Assembly: GCA_025435555.1 (NCBI GenBank) | Contig: JAIWWG010000049.1 | Coordinates: 1-64,000, forward strand | Source: Chytriomyces cf. hyalinus JEL632 | Lineage: Eukaryota; Chytridiomycota; Chytridiomycetes; Chytridiales; Chytriomycetaceae | DNA: 64,000 bases | Direction: 5' to 3' | Shown: positions 50,914 to 59,300 of the stretch, one piece after another | How the letters are laid out: the number at the start of each line of letters is the position of its first letter | How positions within the stretch are numbered: the stretch's first letter is position 1 | The notes under the pieces: generated by a model | Told to the model about the DNA's origin: nothing | The model's database searches: none | Seen by the model: the letters and a program-made list of their open reading frames with translations, nothing else | Program-made: the position numbers and the translations under genes

Positions 50914-53128
50914 TTATTCCTCCTCGGGATAATTCTGAAGCGCGTACCAGTGACTTGAGTAAAACGAGTCCAACCAATGTATCGTCATGTCGAGCTCCTG
51001 TTTACCATTTTTATAATCCAGCGCTGCATAGTACAGACTGCGGCTTTTGCATATCTTTTGGATGGGACCCTCAACCATGAAATTCAAGATGGAAAAGTAA
51101 GTGTGGCCGCGACACCAACTGTACAACTTTGAAACCTTATCAAACGATGGTAAGTCAACTGGGAATTCAACCAACGCGCTTAGAATCCCAAAGCACTCAG
51201 TCAAAGAAGGATATTCATCTTGAAACGCGCTTGACAACGTCTCAGTGGAGAGAACGTGATTGAGAATCGCAGTCCAAGTTTCCACTGTGCGATATTTCGC
51301 AGCATCTGCAAATAGTTCCATGATTTGATTTGGTTGAAGCAGATCCGAGCCTTTGCGCAACAGCAATGCGGTTTGAATAGCCTCGTTCGAATGCACGGCC
51401 TCACACAAGGTTTGATAATGGAGCAGGGAGTGCAGCGCATCTTCCAACGACATTTCGGGATCCAAGTCGAATAGTTCAATCAACACGTGTAACTGATGGA
51501 ATGCATGTGATTCGAGTCCAGGGACAAAAAGCAGCATCCTTATGACGCCCTTATTCCCATTCTCGAACGCCGTGTCAGCCAGTCGCCAAACAAAGTCGGT
51601 TGCAAAAAACCGAGGGTCAGTTCGGAGTAGCTTTGCAAAAGGGGATGCTGTAAACTCTGTCCCAGAATCAAGAAATGATTCCATTTCATCCTCCGCGTCA
51701 AACGGGTTAAATCGGATATCCGCGCCAAGCATGTACAAAATGTTGATGGTCCTGGGCTTGCATTCTTCAAGCACATTGTGAATGACTGAGTACAGTTCCA
51801 TGTTTTCTTGGTTCACGTCTATCCCTGAATCTTGAATTGCGAGAATGTGTTGCACCACCTTGAATGAACCGTTGGCGCAGGCTTTTATCAGCAGAGTGTT
51901 CCAGAATTCAGCGTCAGTTGCAAGTTTGACTTGATCACAGGACATAAACGCGCGGATGGCCTTAATATTGTCCATTGCGCAGAATTCTAGAATCGCTTTC
52001 TCCTGAAAGTTAAGGTCCATCTGCGTGTTGGTGAGAAGCTCGTAATAAACATCCAAGTACTCTTTTGCAACTGCCGCCTCCAGCAGGAAGCAATTTTTCA
52101 ACGAATATGGCGAAATACGCGAGTCTTGAAGGAGGCTCTTGAGTGCGCGTGGTTGGTTACAGTACACAGCAAACTTGATCGAAAGGTGTTCGACGCTGGC
52201 AAGGTCGAAAGCCGACATTGCGAGATGCTCTGCCATGCATTCCATGTCTCCTTGAACAATGGCCTTTAAAAACGATCCATAGGGTACGCGCCTATCGGAA
52301 AGAAGAGCATTTGTGAAGTTCACGAGTTCCTCTGTGACTGTTGATCTGTGCAAGTGGCCCGTGAGCAGGAAGTCGCCATTGACGGACAGGTCTATGCGAC
52401 TATCGCGCAGTAAATTGACCGTCATGTCAGCATCCAGACGTTGTCGAGCTTCTGCAAACAGGCCATAGTTGTTTTGAGAAACGTCAAAGCCGCGATCCGC
52501 ATAAATCCTGACAAACTCTGTCCAGCCTCGTTTAACTGCGCCTAGCATTGCGATCCACGAAACTTGAACGTTTTGATGGTCTTTGAGGATGGAAATCGCG
52601 GCATTGCGTGAGTTGCGCATGCACCGCATGCAGTCTAGCAGTCGGGAAAGTCCGTCTTTCGAGAGAGATTTCGACAGAATCGCAGCAATGGTGTTGAACG
52701 CGTTTTCGGTCATGAAGTAGCCGTTGAAGGGTCCCCACGGATAGGTTAGCTGGTTCGTGTTGATTTTATTCTCAAGAAGATGCTGGAAGATGCTTGTCAG
52801 GTATGTTAGAGGCAGTTTCCTTAGAACAGGTGTTGTTCTTGTTTTGAATGCAGTAAAGCCGCCTGGGTCTGCGTGGATGTTTGTTGTGACATGCGTGCGT
52901 GCAAAGTGCATGTTTTCGACAAGAATGCGGGCAAATCCGCGAAAAGACAGAGCCGCATTTTGAAGATGAGAGTCGATCGGAAGGTGGAGCAAAATGAGAG
53001 TGAGCACTTCGCACGGGAGAGACGACAGAGAGACCCTGCGGTGGTGGTGGTGGTGGGCGGCTGATGAGGCAAGTTGTTGCGTTGCTTTTCGAGAAGGAAA
53101 CAGACTGACCTCGTCTTGCTGTTCCCAT
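50914..53128 (-). CDS. F-box protein with ankyrin-like repeats
   Basis: A long frame that continues open to 53241. Near the N-terminus SLSSLPCEVLTLILLHLP is a typical F-box; the remaining 650 residues are degenerate ankyrin-like helices (SWIAMLGAVKRGWTEFVRIY, LLIKACANGSFKVVQHILA). F-box proteins recruit substrates to SCF ubiquitin ligases. The start is uncertain. The long frame has no ATG before the F-box, only a TTG at 53241, six bases from the transposon end. A model starting at ATG 53128 with a 49-nt intron (donor GTCAGT, acceptor CATCAG) joins in frame to the F-box and is preferred here. The native 5' end may have been cut off by the insertion. Confidence 0.7.
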
Positions 53129-53247
53129 TGAAGGTCCTGGAGTATTCTGTTTGCATCGGCGCTGACATGGGCCGCTGTGTCAATTCTGCTGTTTTTTAAG
53201 TGTCGTTGAAATTTAGCCGAATTTACAGTCTCAAATTTCAAGTACTA

Positions 53248-53471
53248 TTGTGCGTCCAGCGCCAAATTGGAGAAAGGGCAAAATATTGTGCGTCCAGCGC
53301 CAAATTGGAGAAAGGGCAAAATAAATATCCCAGCCATTAAATTTCCCAGCCGCACTCCCTCGCGTCGTAACCCAACCGCATCACGTAGCAGTCGCCCGCA
53401 ACCAATACCAGTAAGATCGCTATTTTTTTCTGCACCTGCAGTGACCAATTGAAGGCAATTGAAGGTGTTTC
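53248..53471 (+). repeat. Left terminal inverted repeat with duplicated end
   Basis: The TIR proper is 53286-53471. The first 38 bp, beginning TTGTGCGTCCAGCGCC, occur twice in tandem, separated by TA. The repeat probably carries the promoter of the transposase, which starts 20 bp inside. Confidence 0.92.
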
Positions 53472-53490
53472 CAGGCGCAGTCTTCACTGA

Positions 53491-54551
53491 ATGGACATTC
53501 TGCGCACAGTGCGTCACCAACAGGGCTCCCCTGAAGTCCGGTACCATTGCCTGTATATGTACTACTACCAGGGGTTCACAAACAGGGCAAAACTTGCCCG
53601 TATGTTTGGGAAGGTTGGGTCAACAATAACGCACTGGATTCAGCAGTACGAAAAGGGGGATGGAACTGACCGGGCACAAAGGGAAACAGTCTACAAGAAG
53701 CATGGTCCGGAACGGCGCCAGTGGCTAGTCGATCTGTATCGCAAGAGACCGGTTCTCCTTCTCAAAGAAGCAAAGGATCTCTACGCATTACAGTTTCCTG
53801 GTTCCACCGTATCAACATCAACGATCTCGTATATTCTCAAAGAGGCTGGTCTCACGTGGAAAGTCCTTGAGCGTCGAGCAATCCAAATTAGCCAAGCTGA
53901 CATTGTTCGATTCACTGAAGAGTTGATGGCTCTCCCTTGGATTCTCGAAAATCTTGTCTTCCTTGACGAAGTTTCGTTTGACAATCGGGACATGCTTACT
54001 ACACGTGGATATGGAATACGGGGAGAGAAGCTGATCTACCGCGGTGAATTTACTCGTAAGCCTCGCGTCTCTCTCCTCTGCTTCATTGGAATTGGTGGCT
54101 TGCTCGAAACATACCCAACAGACGGCACTTTTGATCGCACAAAGTTTACTGCATGCTGTCGTGATTTTGCATTGAGTCAGAGTGTTCGGCAGTACCCTGG
54201 GCAGCATTCAGTCTGGATTCTGGACGGGGCTCGGATTCATTGCGACAAAAACATTGTGTACTATGATCACTTGGCATTTATCCAATTTTTTTGCCAGCTT
54301 ACTGTCCATTTTTCAATCCGATTGAGCTTGTTTTTGGCATGATCAAAGGAGAGCTGAAGAAGGAGTACAAGGAGAACGACCGACGTGATTTGCTGACTGT
54401 TGTTGCTTTGGTGTTGCTGGAAATTGGCAAACGTGACTTTGCAAAACTCTTTGGGAAGTGTGGTTATGGTCCGCGTGGATTCCTTCCCAGTGTAGCCTTT
54501 AAAATGGACCTTGCTGAAATGCCTGGTTTTGAAATGCCTGGTTCTGAATAG
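53491..54551 (+). pseudogene. IS630/Tc1-type DDE transposase with frameshift
   Basis: The N-terminal part has a helix-turn-helix (KLARMFGKVGSTITHWIQQY) and a second HTH-like part with KKHGPERRQWLVDLY. The DDE core follows: VFLDEVSFDNRD (first Asp), WILDGARIHCD (second Asp), then PAYCPFFNPIE (final Glu), with about 33 residues between the second Asp and the Glu. At a run of seven T (about 54285-54292) the frame must slip by one base for the chain to continue, so the gene as written breaks between the second and third catalytic residues. This may be an inactivating indel, a homopolymer error, or programmed slippage. The remainder ends at 54551. Confidence 0.82.
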
Positions 54552-54609
54552 TGTGTATGTACTTCAGGTTTATTTGTAACGACAACAAAGCAATAAAGTC
54601 CGGTCCAAG

Positions 54610-55596
54610 TTAAGCGTGGTCGACATCTTCCTGCAATCCCACTCTTGCCAGCAAGTCCAAACTGTTCCCCACCTCTCGCGGCTGCAGCGACACGCTGAAG
54701 TCCATCAAAACGCTTCGACAAATCTTTAACTCATGAAGCATACCTTTAGCTTCAGCTTCCGCAAACTCCAAAGAACGCTTTGACCGTTGCAAGCACTCAA
54801 GTGTGCGTTCAAAGCCTAAAATTGCCGTTTCGTTCTGTCGGATTGCGACCTCATTGGATTGAATTATCATTCGGTTATGGACAGCTTCGTCAGTAGCTGG
54901 CAAATCAAAATGCCGAATCAGGATTGTCGGAGGAGGTTCTTCAATGAGTCTCTCTTGTATGTGGACTGGCTGTGTTGTGATCCAGTTTGCCCAAAGATGG
55001 TAACTGATGTGCTTTCCTGGGAATTCTGCTGAGTGCAGCGCCTTGAGCCTTTCGATCAGATTTTGTACCACTGCGCTTTGTACTGCTCCGGATCGGTCTG
55101 TTTTTTCTGGCGAGAGCATCGTCTTTTTCGCTTTTAGAAACACTGCACTTTTGTCCATCGCATTGCCATACTTTTGGACATACAGTACGATTGTTTCGGT
55201 GTTCCATTTCGCCAGTAATACCTCATCAACTTCCGCCAATTTGAGTGACTTCTTGGCGTTCTTGGTTGACCTGACAAGAAGGAATGGCGCCATTATGTCG
55301 GGAGACGCGCCTGCTGGTAACTCAGGAGCATATGTCATAGGAGCATCGGCAGCATCAGGGACAACAACTTCGCGAATCACGTGTGACCTTGCCATTAAAC
55401 AGACAGCTTCTTTGAATTCGTCAACACTTGCAGAATTGATTTCGACAGGTTGCCGTGGTGTCGCTTGCTGACCAATGAAATCCCGCACAGCCATTGCAAC
55501 GCTGGTTTTAAACGGCCCAACAGGCGCATTGGGGGGTTGCTGCTGAGAATTCGCAGCGCGATCAGTTCTTGGTTGGAGAACAGTGGATTCGGCCAT
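54610..55596 (-). CDS. Unknown second ORF of the transposon
   Basis: A single exon of 328 residues within the element, starting five bases inside the right TIR; an in-frame Met also lies within the TIR at 55623. The N-terminus is Gln/Pro-rich. The middle has FLLVRSTKNAKKSLKLAEVD, LVRSTK-like basic patches and EFPGKHISYHLWANWIT. The C-terminal third is helical and coiled-coil-like (VHNRMIIQSNEVAIRQNETA). No transposase or other domain recognised. It may be an accessory DNA-binding or regulatory protein of the element, or captured host sequence. The intact reading frame argues for recent selection or youth. Confidence 0.65.
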   Translation of the reverse strand: MAESTVLQPRTDRAANSQQQPPNAPVGPFKTSVAMAVRDFIGQQATPRQPVEINSASVDEFKEAVCLMARSHVIREVVVPDAADAPMTYAPELPAGASPDIMAPFLLVRSTKNAKKSLKLAEVDEVLLAKWNTETIVLYVQKYGNAMDKSAVFLKAKKTMLSPEKTDRSGAVQSAVVQNLIERLKALHSAEFPGKHISYHLWANWITTQPVHIQERLIEEPPPTILIRHFDLPATDEAVHNRMIIQSNEVAIRQNETAILGFERTLECLQRSKRSLEFAEAEAKGMLHELKICRSVLMDFSVSLQPREVGNSLDLLARVGLQEDVDHA

Positions 55597-55600
55597 GGCA

Positions 55601-55786
55601 GAAACACCTTCAATTGCCTTCAATTGGTCACTGCAGGTGCAGAAAAAAATAGCGATCTTACTGGTATTGGATGCGGGCGGCTGCTACGTGATGCGGTTGG
55701 GTTGCGACGCGAGGGAGTGCGGCTGGGAAATTTAATGGCTGGGATATTTATTTTGCCCTTTCTCCAATTTGGCGCTGGACGCACAA
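55601..55786 (-). repeat. Right terminal inverted repeat
   Basis: 186 bp, inverted copy of 53286-53471 with about three base differences. Ends at GGACGCACAA before TA. Confidence 0.93.
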
Positions 55787-56341
55787 TAACATGACGTAAT
55801 CCACGCGTCGCCGAGCCCGGACTTTGCACAGAAACTCGGATCAGACTGGCTGTCACAAATGTTGATTATTTTTTATTTGTCCCGGATATCAGAGGACTGA
55901 CCTTGGCCGTCAAAAGTCAGAATCTGGTTTTCCTCTGCTGCGTGATCGTTGCATTCATTGCTTGAAAAATGGCTGGCAAGCGGCCTTGTTATCCAGCATA
56001 TGTTGTTGTATTGATCGGCAGCCATGTTATGTGTGCTGCGATTTTTGGACGTGAAATGCGCTGTGAATGAGCCACATGGATACAGCGCATCGGAGTCATT
56101 GTGTCCAAGGAGCTTCCAATGCCACTAATGCGGTTCATGAATGGTGTCGTCAAGCATCAATAAACCCTTCCCAGTGCTCATCCACCTGAACGAATTCCTG
56201 TTTCCATCGGAGTTAAAAATCACAGGTTTCAAACACACGCTTCATTCAACAGCGTCCCACACATGCACACATGCATTACCAACAATAATCATACCAATAA
56301 AAACCCTTCATACATCAACGCCCAAATTTCCACCCAACACA
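55787..56341. other. Gene-free interval right of the transposon
   Basis: About 550 bp. No supported gene; this may be the displaced upstream region of the F-box gene together with the 3' flank of the lipase gene. Confidence 0.45.
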
Positions 56342-59300
56342 TCACTCCTCCTTCCGAAGGGCAATCGCAGCCAACAACGCCTCCATACAATCCTCATAAT
56401 TTTTGGGAATATGATCGCTCATCATCTTGGCCGAAAACACGGGCTCATGACAAATCTCCTTCACCTCCTCACACCGCCGCAAAATCACCTGTGACGAAAC
56501 ACTGCCATCTCCACGCACACCTTGCTGATGACTCACCCAGTAAACCGTCCCGCTTGGATACAACCGGTCATTCTGCATGCTCCCACGAAGCTGTGAAATC
56601 ACGTTAAAGAAAAAGTCTTGTTCTTCGGTGCTTGCGGTGCGTTGTGTTGCTTGGAGTGCCAGAGTGCGGGCCATGATTTTTTCGCTGAGGCCGCGGTTGA
56701 TTGGGTCCAGGAGGTGGAATGTGACTGTTTTCAAGTCGCGGATGAGGCCGACACTCATTGTTGGGATCATGTCGTCTCCGTGGATGAGTGTTGTTGCGAG
56801 ACCTTTGAGAGATGTGCTGCATGCGTGGTCAACTACGCAAGGTGTTCCGAACGAATACACGTGCATGGGCCGGAATGCGGGAAGCCCACTTGATGGGGAG
56901 GTAGAGTACGGAGTGGGTGGGTTCGACATTGGACTCAGCGTCGACCATTCCAGGGCCAACAAAGTAGCTACACCCCCGCCGAGACTGTGTCCCACAAGTA
57001 CCAGGCCAAACGAAGGATTTTCTTGGAGCGCATTTTCGACAGCGAGGAACAGACAAGAGTCGCGTTTCCACAGCCGCCGAGCCGTGTGGAGCATGCCCGC
57101 ATGCACCCGGTGGCCCTTGTATTCAGCGTAGTCAAACTTCAAGTCAATCAAAAGGTCACTCAGGCTCAGTGTCCCTCGAAGCGTGACAACGACAACCCCT
57201 GCTTCCCGGTCAATTGACACGTAGTGAACCACCGGTTGGATTGAACCTTCCTCGGTGTCGGGTTTCGGAGTTGCGCCATCGACTGGTTCTGGCATGGGCA
57301 CCGATTCGTCCATGAACGATGAATGGACAATATCCAGTACAGGAATATTGACATGCGTCGCAAACGCCACATGATTCATTGGAACCGAGGGATCATTCAC
57401 ACCTTTGAGTTTACGAATATTTCCCACGTCAAACACAGTCATAAACTCGCTGCCGTACGATGCCGTTGCATATCGACAGTACCGCGCCAGATTATCCACC
57501 AAATTGATCATTGGAAAGTGCCGGCCCATTCCCAGACTCATTTTCGAAGAAGCAAAGGAAATAACGCTGGATGCGTTATCATTGAGGAGCATTTCGGAGG
57601 TCACTGAGTTTCGGCGTGGGTCAAAGGCTGAGTGGTTTAGGACTGACAAGTCGTCCAATTCGTTCATGTTGTTGATGTTGATGCGGTGCGTACGTCGGAT
57701 TGTACCGTCCTTTTGCTTTTTCGACAACGTTACCTGAAACACACATGCAGCGTTAATATCCAGAATATATATGTGCAGATGGAAAGCTAAGTTACCTTAT
57801 CGAATAATGTCGAGACACCCGCCGAGTATTCCATAATGGAGTGATCCCCCTCCAGACTGTAATTTTCAAACTCGTCGAGAATCTGAGGAGGATCAAAGCT
57901 TCCTGGCATGCTAGTGCTGTTGTACATTTCTGTAGGACCAGGTGGGATCCAGCTTTTGACATAATCAAATAACCAGTTTGAAATCGTGGGTTTCACCGCG
58001 TATTCGTCAACCACTTCGCTTTCCACAGGTAAAACAAGGCTTTGCTCATCAAGTGCACTGCTGCTCATACTGTGCATGCTCAGCTGGTGATCACCCTTTT
58101 TGTAGTTAGATTCAGCCCAGTTGTCATGTGCATCCTCTGCGTCCATCGCGCTTCCAATAAAAGAACGGGCGTCTTCAAAAATGTCTGAGTCTCCTCCCAC
58201 GGAATCTTCAGCGAGTGATTTTGCCGAATGCAGACCGGCTTCTTCATCGGATGAAGATCCATTGCGGACTGTGAGAGGGGACGGTTTCATGGAGAGTCTG
58301 CCAAGAGACAAGCGCTTCGTGTTCACGTTCGTTTTACTTGCTGATAAAGACTCATTGCGGACATTGAGTCGTTCCATGGCTTTGATGAATTCTTGTTCGG
58401 ATCGAAAGGCGCGCTGCCATTGGTATCGGGGAGCCTTTTTTGTAGAAGAAGATGGTACCGCTCCAGGTGGTAACGGCGGAGCGACAGCTGGATCGATCGC
58501 ATGGATCCCGACACCAGCGGCAATTCCACCAGCGACCCATCCAACTGCCTTCCTGGCCGTTGCAGTGAGCGAGTTGGGATCCACGTTAGCGGGCTCTAAA
58601 TCCTGTTCAATAAGGCGGGCGACTTTTCTGGATTCCAGTGTGCGTTCGTGGGTCATGATTTGGAGACAAGCGTATGCGGCTAGGGCTTTTGTGATTCCGC
58701 CTGTGAGAGTGACGGCGCCAATAGCGTTTCCAAAGATTCCGCGGGATGCAAATGCTGGGTCGTGGAGCAGGATTTCTTGGTGGACGAGGTGAACGAGATG
58801 GGTGAGTGCGCGGGAAGTTTCCGTGGAGCCAAAGAGTGAGTTGAAGATGTTGACGGTTTCTGAGGCGGCTTTGAAGGAGAGTTTCATGCTGGTGGATGCA
58901 ATATGGAATGTTCCGAATGTGAGAAGTTCTGCGAATGAAAAGACTGTGTTGACTGTGGATACTCCGGCGTCGGAGGCCTGGATTTCTTGAGTCAGATTGG
59001 GTGACAGTTGACACGTACTCGAAATGTTATATACTTACAGCATCCACGATCCCAGTAACGCCAGTGACAAGAGACGCAACCGTTGATTTGTGAGTTGCCT
59101 GGGCAGGTGGAGATGGAGATTGTGCGGCCTTGTCAGCACCTCCGACGTCTTCCCCTTGCGCATCTGAAGGGCCGTGGACCACGATTTCAGGCGGCTTTGG
59201 AACTTCAGGCGGCTTTGAGTGCAGAGTGGACAAGACTGAAATCAGCGTGTTTTTGACGGTGCTGAGAGTTGCCTCAGATCCAAAGCGAGCCATCGAAAGA

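What the first reader, a model, noticed from the sequence alone, without database searches (positions are those of the whole stretch)
53248..55786. Tc1/mariner-IS630 element with 186-bp TIRs and a second, unknown, convergent ORF
The element carries an intact 328-residue ORF of unknown function opposite the transposase. Both ORFs start beside a TIR, so each TIR probably supplies a promoter, and they meet within 60 bp. TIRs are about 98% identical. A second protein is not standard for this superfamily and could be a regulator, a DNA-binding partner or a captured gene.
Basis: partly seen in the sequence, partly recalled or inferred. Interest (0 to 1): 0.7.

Follow-up and report, generated by a model that had tools for sequence, protein, structure and literature searches.

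The report
Two-gene mariner transposon in a fungus
This is a jumping gene of the common Tc1/mariner kind that carries, besides its usual cutting enzyme, a second conserved gene read from the opposite end, and many relatives in the same, probably fungal, genome carry one too.

Summary
Window 53246-55788 is a TA-flanked IS630/Tc1/mariner element with TIRs identical at 185 of 188 positions, a transposase at one end and a convergent 328-codon ORF2 at the other. In this copy the transposase frame is broken; two copies have both frames open.

ORF2 is neither accidental nor, on the evidence, host sequence. 33 of 34 examined loci of this transposase clade carry a convergent homologous ORF2 or its remnant, although ORF2 identity falls to about 20-22%. 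ORF2 is under purifying selection (dN/dS 0.27-0.36) and has intron-like GT-AG interruptions in two sublineages. No family or solved structure matches it significantly.

Two other transposase lineages in this genome also have convergent second ORFs, not detectably related to this one. The 186-bp TIRs are special to this family; related families have short imperfect ends, so "each TIR is a promoter" is untested and not general.

Best explanation: ORF2 is a dedicated partner of the transposase that takes part in or modulates transposition. The layout is like maize MuDR, but membership lies with IS630/Tc1/mariner. The function is inferred, not shown.

The parts
53246..53283 (.). TA plus an extra tandem 38-bp copy of the left tip, absent from the right end
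   Evidence: Direct repeat D1; matches of the three other near-full-length copies begin at query 37-39
53284..53471 (+). left terminal inverted repeat (188 bp with TA)
   Evidence: 185 of 188 identical to the right one
53491..54342 (+). transposase, N-terminal part: HTH-like region and DDE_3 up to the break of the frame
   Evidence: 283 codons; Pfam DDE_3 E 4e-7, 30.4 bits, cut-off 28.6; HTH hits below cut-off
54273..54551 (+). transposase, C-terminal part in another frame (holds ...FFNPIE)
   Evidence: Pfam DDE_3 E 1.3e-5, profile 107-142, below cut-off on its own; one frame in the copies at C178 and C42
54610..55596 (-). ORF2: 328-codon partner protein of unknown family, convergent to the transposase
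   Evidence: homologs; selection
55084..55098 (-). ORF2 motif DRSGA (D, R and last A invariant in alignment A1)
54688..54888 (-). ORF2 long helix, residues 237-303, probable coiled coil
   Evidence: best part of a poor model, pLDDT about 62-81 over residues 241-300; crude heptad score peaks near residue 263
54616..54630 (-). ORF2 C-terminal motif EDVDH (D324, D326, H327 invariant in A1)
55601..55788 (-). right terminal inverted repeat with TA
55787..55788 (.). right TA of the target-site duplication
   Evidence: TA on both sides in all four near-identical copies

Best explanation
A two-gene cut-and-paste DNA transposon of the IS630/Tc1/mariner superfamily. Gene 1 is a DD34E transposase that recognises the bipartite tips (TTGTGCG, then AAA-n-TGGA) and moves the element between TA sites. 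Gene 2 (ORF2), transcribed from the other end, makes a dedicated partner protein. I think it most likely joins the transposase in the nucleus, through its helical C-terminal part and its opposite charge, to assemble or control the transposition complex. Shown: element anatomy, copies, constant convergent pairing, co-divergence, purifying selection, intron-like interruptions in relatives. Inferred: recognition of the tips by the transposase, and that ORF2 is made, binds the transposase and is needed for movement. That it belongs to the element: about 0.97. That it acts directly in transposition rather than against host silencing: about 0.6.
For: 33 of 34 examined clade-I transposase loci have a convergent ORF2 homolog or remnant. 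The place is kept while ORF2 identity falls to about 20-22%. dN/dS 0.27-0.36, bootstrap upper limits 0.38-0.51, in three pairs. GT-AG interruptions of 60-74 nt in D and 52-54 nt in C. Pairwise distances of the two proteins correlate, r = 0.93 over 15 non-independent pairs. ORF2 pI 4.9-6.8 (11 sequences) against transposase 8.3-10 (6 sequences). Long C-terminal helix. Two further transposase lineages have convergent partners: 5 of 6 and 15 of 17 partner loci have a DDE_3 match within 3 kb, all convergent; clade I by the same test 26 of 39.
Against: No expression, binding or mobility data. No significant family or structure match for ORF2. The only fold possible here is poor (pLDDT 40.7). dN/dS of ORF2 is 2.4-2.9 times that of the transposase in the two pairs compared directly, which fits a host-facing role as well. 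The charge argument does not carry over to lineage G, whose partner is basic (pI 8.5-8.7). Orphan ORF2 copies exist: C197 has an open ORF2 and no transposase match in the 2 kb after it. A Tc1-like transposase in this genome has no such partner in sight.
Confidence: 0.6

Rival explanations
1. ORF2 is a counter-defence protein: it protects the element from host silencing (as VANC does for Arabidopsis VANDAL elements) and is not part of the transposition machine.
For: Higher dN/dS than the transposase; different lineages have partners without detectable homology, as expected if the target is the host. VANC as a transposon-encoded anti-silencing protein: abstract of PMC5735166.
Against: No DNA-binding family was matched and ORF2 is acidic; repeated binding motifs in the element were not searched for. 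Lineage-specific partners would also follow from co-evolution with each transposase.
Confidence: 0.22
2. ORF2 is a repressor that limits copy number.
For: Copy numbers are low: four near-identical copies in family A and eight in B.
Against: Selection among copies would favour loss of a repressor, yet recent copies C178 and C42 keep it intact.
Confidence: 0.12
3. ORF2 is a captured host gene or accidental insertion carried along.
For: Unknown family; single-ORF elements are usual in the superfamily (PMC7325037, passages). Some ORF2 copies have no transposase beside them (C197, C57:509269 near a contig end, C46:4911).
Against: Present with transposases that share only 44-47% identity with that of the window, convergent in 33 of 34 loci; purifying selection.
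Confidence: 0.03
4. ORF2 is not a protein gene: an open frame by chance, or an antisense RNA feature.
For: No translation evidence; some copies carry stops.
Against: dN/dS well below 1 in three pairs, conserved motifs, intron-like interruptions.
Confidence: 0.02

Closest known systems
IS630/Tc1/mariner superfamily (single-gene members such as Tc1 and mariner)
   Same: DDE_3 transposase, HTH-like N-terminus (weak hits), DD34E spacing, TA on both sides, TIRs. Long TIRs also occur in some Tc1 elements such as Minos (PMC7325037, passages).
   Different: A second conserved convergent gene; length 2.3-2.7 kb against about 1.2-1.3 kb for Tc1 and mariner (PMC7325037, passages).
Ciliate multi-ORF members: Paramecium elements, TBE, Tec
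   Same: All 13 Paramecium elements have, besides the DDE ORF, an ORF2 of unknown function, similar among them (PMC5405496, section 7). TBE and Tec have three ORFs (PMC7325037 and PMC9797194, passages). The three TBE genes are under purifying selection (abstract of PMC4724952).
   Different: Fungus-like host; two genes; no tyrosine recombinase seen. Whether the Paramecium ORF2 is homologous could not be tested: its sequence is not held here.
Maize MuDR (mudrA/mudrB)
   Same: Two convergent genes, about 215-bp TIRs with promoters, second protein of unknown function (PMC3440606, passages). The window element resembles it in layout.
   Different: Mutator superfamily; no Mutator family among the Pfam hits here. 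Not a member.
Arabidopsis VANDAL elements with VANC
   Same: A transposon carrying a second, fast-evolving protein besides a transposase (in part recalled).
   Different: Different superfamily (recalled); VANC is an anti-silencing protein (abstract of PMC5735166); no such activity shown here.

Membership tests
IS630/Tc1/mariner superfamily | DDE_3-type transposase | tested here: met
   Pfam DDE_3 above cut-off in the window N-part and in four open relatives; NCBIfam IS630 family transposase 114.8 bits, cut-off 100, for the copy C178
IS630/Tc1/mariner superfamily | DD34D/E-type catalytic spacing | tested here: met
   D159, D245 and E280 invariant over six transposases in A2, 34 residues between the last two; in the window copy the third residue lies beyond the break of the frame
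IS630/Tc1/mariner superfamily | TA target-site duplication | tested here: met
   TA on both sides of all four near-identical copies; no empty site was available
IS630/Tc1/mariner superfamily | terminal inverted repeats | tested here: met
   188 bp in family A; 20-82 bp imperfect in 8 other elements; none detected in 4 (C65, C111, C204, C217) of the 13 tested
IS630/Tc1/mariner superfamily | single transposase ORF (usual, not universal) | tested here: not met
   ORF2 homologs in 33 of 34 clade-I loci
MuDR / Mutator superfamily | Mutator-type transposase | tested here: not met
   No Mutator family among Pfam hits to E 1 for the window transposase, nor to E 0.01 for four open relatives
MuDR / Mutator superfamily | about 9-bp target-site duplication (recalled) | tested here: not met
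   only TA is shared by the two flanks in the four copies printed
Ciliate multi-ORF members (Paramecium, TBE, Tec) | homologous second ORF | not testable with these tools
   ciliate sequences and supplementary files are not held
Ciliate multi-ORF members (Paramecium, TBE, Tec) | tyrosine recombinase ORF in the larger elements | tested here: not met
   no further long ORF in the window element; no Pfam hit to E 1 for ORF2

The most novel reading that the evidence does not exclude
Convergent two-gene organisation is a general way of life for IS630/Tc1-type transposons of this fungus. At least three deep transposase lineages each recruited, independently, an unrelated dedicated partner protein into the same place, so a supposedly self-sufficient transposase superfamily has repeatedly evolved an obligate or strongly selected cofactor.
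Probability: 0.35. Interest if true: 0.75.

Novelty: new variant of a known kind. Interest (0 to 1): 0.6.

Why it matters
Tc1/mariner transposases are textbook stand-alone enzymes, and tools such as Sleeping Beauty rest on that (recalled). A conserved second gene, kept under selection through deep divergence and paralleled by apparently unrelated partners in two further lineages, makes it directly testable whether these enzymes need or tolerate a cofactor, and whether it serves assembly, targeting or escape from silencing. It also gives a fungal counterpart to the unexplained ORF2 of ciliate elements and to mudrB of maize.

Tried and rejected
Rejected: ORF2 as accident, host sequence or chance frame. 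Rejected: membership in Mutator in spite of the MuDR-like plan. Considered and not supported: homology of ORF2 with the partners of lineages F and G (hhalign probability 0.2 and 0.2; with two G sequences 0.1; BLASTP E 0.59 between F and G). Short shared patterns seen by eye were not significant. A deep common origin of the three partners is not excluded.

Led nowhere: family and PDB sequence searches for ORF2 and relatives. The window ORF2 had no Pfam hit to E 1. Relatives gave only hits below cut-off, the best Fib_alpha E 0.0023 for a D sequence. PDB hits were weak (E 0.033; E 0.2-4.6, mostly helical proteins). NCBIfam gave none. Prokaryote, viral and plasmid collections gave no ORF2 relative, nor viral contigs any transposase relative; four prokaryote loci matched the transposase distantly, 23-35% over partial stretches. 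The structure model from a single sequence is too poor for a fold search, and none was run.

Not established: a partner for 15 of 68 DDE_3 loci. These are the Tc1-like C1:537342; a group H of eight equally scoring short matches (C36, C79, C90:259250, C166, C196, C232, C239:35505, C205:51239); and C41, C134, C167 (two), C32, C46:428373. Of these only C1:537342 was read.

Searches found no paper. Searches listed 20 of 25, 15 of 16 and 10 of 15 papers. Among the titles and abstract starts listed I saw none reporting one. This covers open-licence PMC papers only, not Repbase. Passages of PMC9977792 and PMC2657916 were looked at and were not relevant.

Full report
OBSERVATION. Window 53246-55788 is bounded by TA and carries inverted repeats 53284-53471 and 55601-55788, 185 of 188 identical. 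The left ATG (53491) lies 19 bp inside the TIR, the right ATG (55596) 4 bp inside, and 58 bp separate the two stop codons. ORF2 is open for 328 codons.

HOST. The window lies in an unnamed 37.8-Mb genome of 242 contigs. It has chitin synthase (18 matches to PF01644, all over the cut-off) and radial-spoke proteins of flagella (12 matches to PF04712). I infer a flagellated, chytrid-like fungus; the species is not known.

COPIES OF THE SAME FAMILY. Three other near-full-length copies at 99-100% identity exist (C195, C178, C42). All four have different flanks and TA on both sides. In C178 and C42 both frames are open: 354 codons for the transposase, 328 for ORF2. In C195 both are interrupted. This is what a recently active element looks like (inference).

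ORF2 IS A CONSTANT PART OF THE ELEMENT. A search of the genome with ORF2 gave 43 matches at E <= 1e-3, with identities from 100% down to 21%. A search with the transposase N-part gave 64 matches, of which the 30 best were cut out as loci. I examined the loci held, after merging overlaps, plus five fetched stretches. 37 of them hold a transposase match, and 34 of these are of the clade of the window element (called clade I; sublineages A to E are my labels). 33 of the 34 have a homologous ORF2 or ORF2 remnant, convergent and directly downstream. The exception, C34, is a transposase truncated after about 176 residues. The other three are two lineage-F loci and the Tc1-like control. Most matches beyond the 30 best were not examined in this way. 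Where the transposase frame is open, 29-81 bp separate it from the ORF2 frame (families A, B, C and D), except where the ORF2 frame of that copy is itself interrupted.

ORPHAN ORF2 COPIES. In one search, 13 of 39 clade-I partner loci have no DDE_3 match within 3 kb. Two of these (C181:24361, C238:93093) do have a transposase by the profile, and C230:126286 has an N-terminal and C46:500974 a C-terminal transposase piece. C161 and C216 are truncated copies that keep a TIR. C57:509269 ends 624 bp before the contig end. C197 has an open ORF2 and no transposase match in the 1988 bp held after it. C46:4911 has none in the stretch read. C111:792095, C18, C204:208225 and C37 were not read.

SELECTION. 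Nei-Gojobori estimates (own script) for pairs at usable distance: ORF2 0.36 (C1b/C226), 0.33 (C178/C164b), 0.27 (C114/C30); transposase 0.15 and 0.11 for the first two pairs, and 0.08 for C114/C111. The bootstrap ranges for ORF2 end at 0.51, 0.44 and 0.38, all below 1. The C30 ORF2 piece begins slightly inside the intron-like stretch, and C164b gives only 124 transposase codons. For the deeper pairs synonymous sites are near or at saturation, and among near-identical copies the numbers are too small to say anything. ORF2 is thus constrained, but less than the transposase: 2.4- and 2.9-fold higher dN/dS in the two pairs compared directly. Pairwise protein distances of the two genes run in parallel (r = 0.93, 15 pairs among 6 lineages, not independent).

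INTRON-LIKE INTERRUPTIONS. In sublineage D the ORF2 homology is interrupted by a GT...AG stretch of 74 nt in C111 and C35, 65 nt in C30, and 60 nt in C204 and C217. In C114, C67 and C197 the region is free of stops. In sublineage C the ORF2 frame has no near ATG in C1, but a short upstream frame with ATG is followed by a GT...AG stretch of 52 nt in C1 and 54 nt in C226 and C233, after which the main frame runs. Splicing is inferred, not shown.

WHAT ORF2 LOOKS LIKE. No significant Pfam, NCBIfam or PDB match. 15 columns are invariant over seven sequences, two of them near-identical; among them D167-R168, L184-K185, H188, W202-A203, P222-P223, D324, D326 and H327. It is acidic in all 11 clade-I sequences computed (pI 4.9-6.8), while six transposases have pI 8.3-10. 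The F partner has pI 6.2, but the two G partners computed have 8.5 and 8.7, so opposite charge is not a general rule. A model from the single sequence is poor (mean pLDDT 40.7); only the helix 237-303 is better, about 62-81 over residues 241-300. I take it as a probable coiled coil.

THE ENDS. Sublineages B and C share the tip TTGTGCG and an inner AAA-n-TGGA motif with A; D has TTG with weaker likeness. This bipartite tip suits a transposase with two DNA-binding parts, so ORF2 is not needed to explain recognition of the ends (inference). The long, nearly identical TIRs are special to family A. Of 13 elements tested, the one A element gave 188 bp, eight B, C and D elements gave 20-82 bp at 75-90%, and C65 (cut at a contig start), C111, C204 and C217 gave none. 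One F element has 28 bp at 93%. So the two ends normally differ, and the promoter-in-TIR idea cannot be a general rule.

TWO MORE LINEAGES. Lineage F (transposase 26% identical to C178 over the alignment) has a convergent frame of 332 codons. Its homologs occur at six places, five with a convergent DDE_3 match within 3 kb (C57, C90, C211, C172, C168); the sixth is a 66-base fragment at a contig end. Lineage G, with an interrupted transposase, has a convergent 400-codon frame. Of 17 G-partner loci, 15 have a convergent DDE_3 match within 3 kb and two have none; of these loci only C162 (one of two) and C161 were read over the partner. C161 has inverted repeats of 48 bp at 98%, the right one reaching the edge of the stretch read, and an extra upstream frame that resembles one in C162. 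The partners of clade I, F and G are not detectably homologous. Counting all DDE_3 matches (68 loci after merging), 46 are paired by the direct searches, none in another orientation. One search adds seven (C111, C116, C13, C204, C217, C30, C35). That makes 53 of 68, remnants included; for 15 no partner was established, and only one of those was read. That one, a Tc1-like 313-codon gene at C1:536928-537866, shows no clade-I ORF2, and the opposing frames there are at most 179 codons and overlap plus-strand frames; its borders rest on a weak repeat (E 0.12).

MECHANISM. Shown: a transposon with DD34E transposase and TA flanks whose second gene is inherited, constrained and placed as a fixed partner. 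Inferred: that the helical ORF2 binds the transposase and takes part in or controls transposition (about 0.6). The main rival is counter-silencing (about 0.22), which the faster divergence and the lineage-specific partners would also fit.

COMPARISON. Layout and second protein resemble maize MuDR (PMC3440606, passages), but the transposase and the TA flanks place the element in IS630/Tc1/mariner. Inside that superfamily, multi-ORF members were described in ciliates, with an ORF2 of unknown function in all 13 Paramecium elements (PMC5405496, section 7). I saw no description of a fungal two-gene element in the listings of eight searches of open papers (three empty, three listing only the best-ranked papers); Repbase could not be searched.

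VERDICT. A real, conserved two-gene variant of a known superfamily, with an unexpected generality across lineages of one genome.

Noticed in passing
window 53246-53321: Tandem 38-bp duplication of the left tip including TA; the outer copy is TA-flanked too, so the true left border of the insertion is ambiguous. Slippage or a nested or abortive event is possible.
   Followed up: partly
L081 (G000:C162:282177-284903) and L082 (G000:C161:273140-276200): Lineage G: interrupted DDE_3 transposase with a convergent 400-410-codon partner of unknown family and a further upstream frame with a cysteine cluster, possibly a first exon of the partner.
   Followed up: partly
L069 (G000:C57:147377-149453): Lineage F: convergent 332-codon partner of unknown family; 28-bp ends at 93% with TA-TTGTTG.
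   Followed up: partly
G000: C36:41954, C79:396276, C90:259250, C166:112546, C196:112260, C232:538614, C239:35505, C205:51239: Eight equally scoring short DDE_3 matches, probably one exon of a further transposon family; not read.
   Followed up: no
G000: C46:4911-5270, C204:208225-208584, C37:69178-69534: Near-equal matches to a diverged ORF2 with no transposase match nearby; may be remnants or non-autonomous elements. Only C46 was read.
   Followed up: partly
G000:C181:16514-20630 and C238:97380-101497: A stretch of at least 4.1 kb holding a family-B element is 99.98% identical at two places, so part of the copy number is segmental duplication, not transposition.
   Followed up: no
window 50914-53241 and 56342-57742: The element lies between a minus-strand frame with ankyrin and weak F-box likeness, open up to within a few bases of the element, and the 3' end of a class-3 lipase gene.
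   Followed up: no
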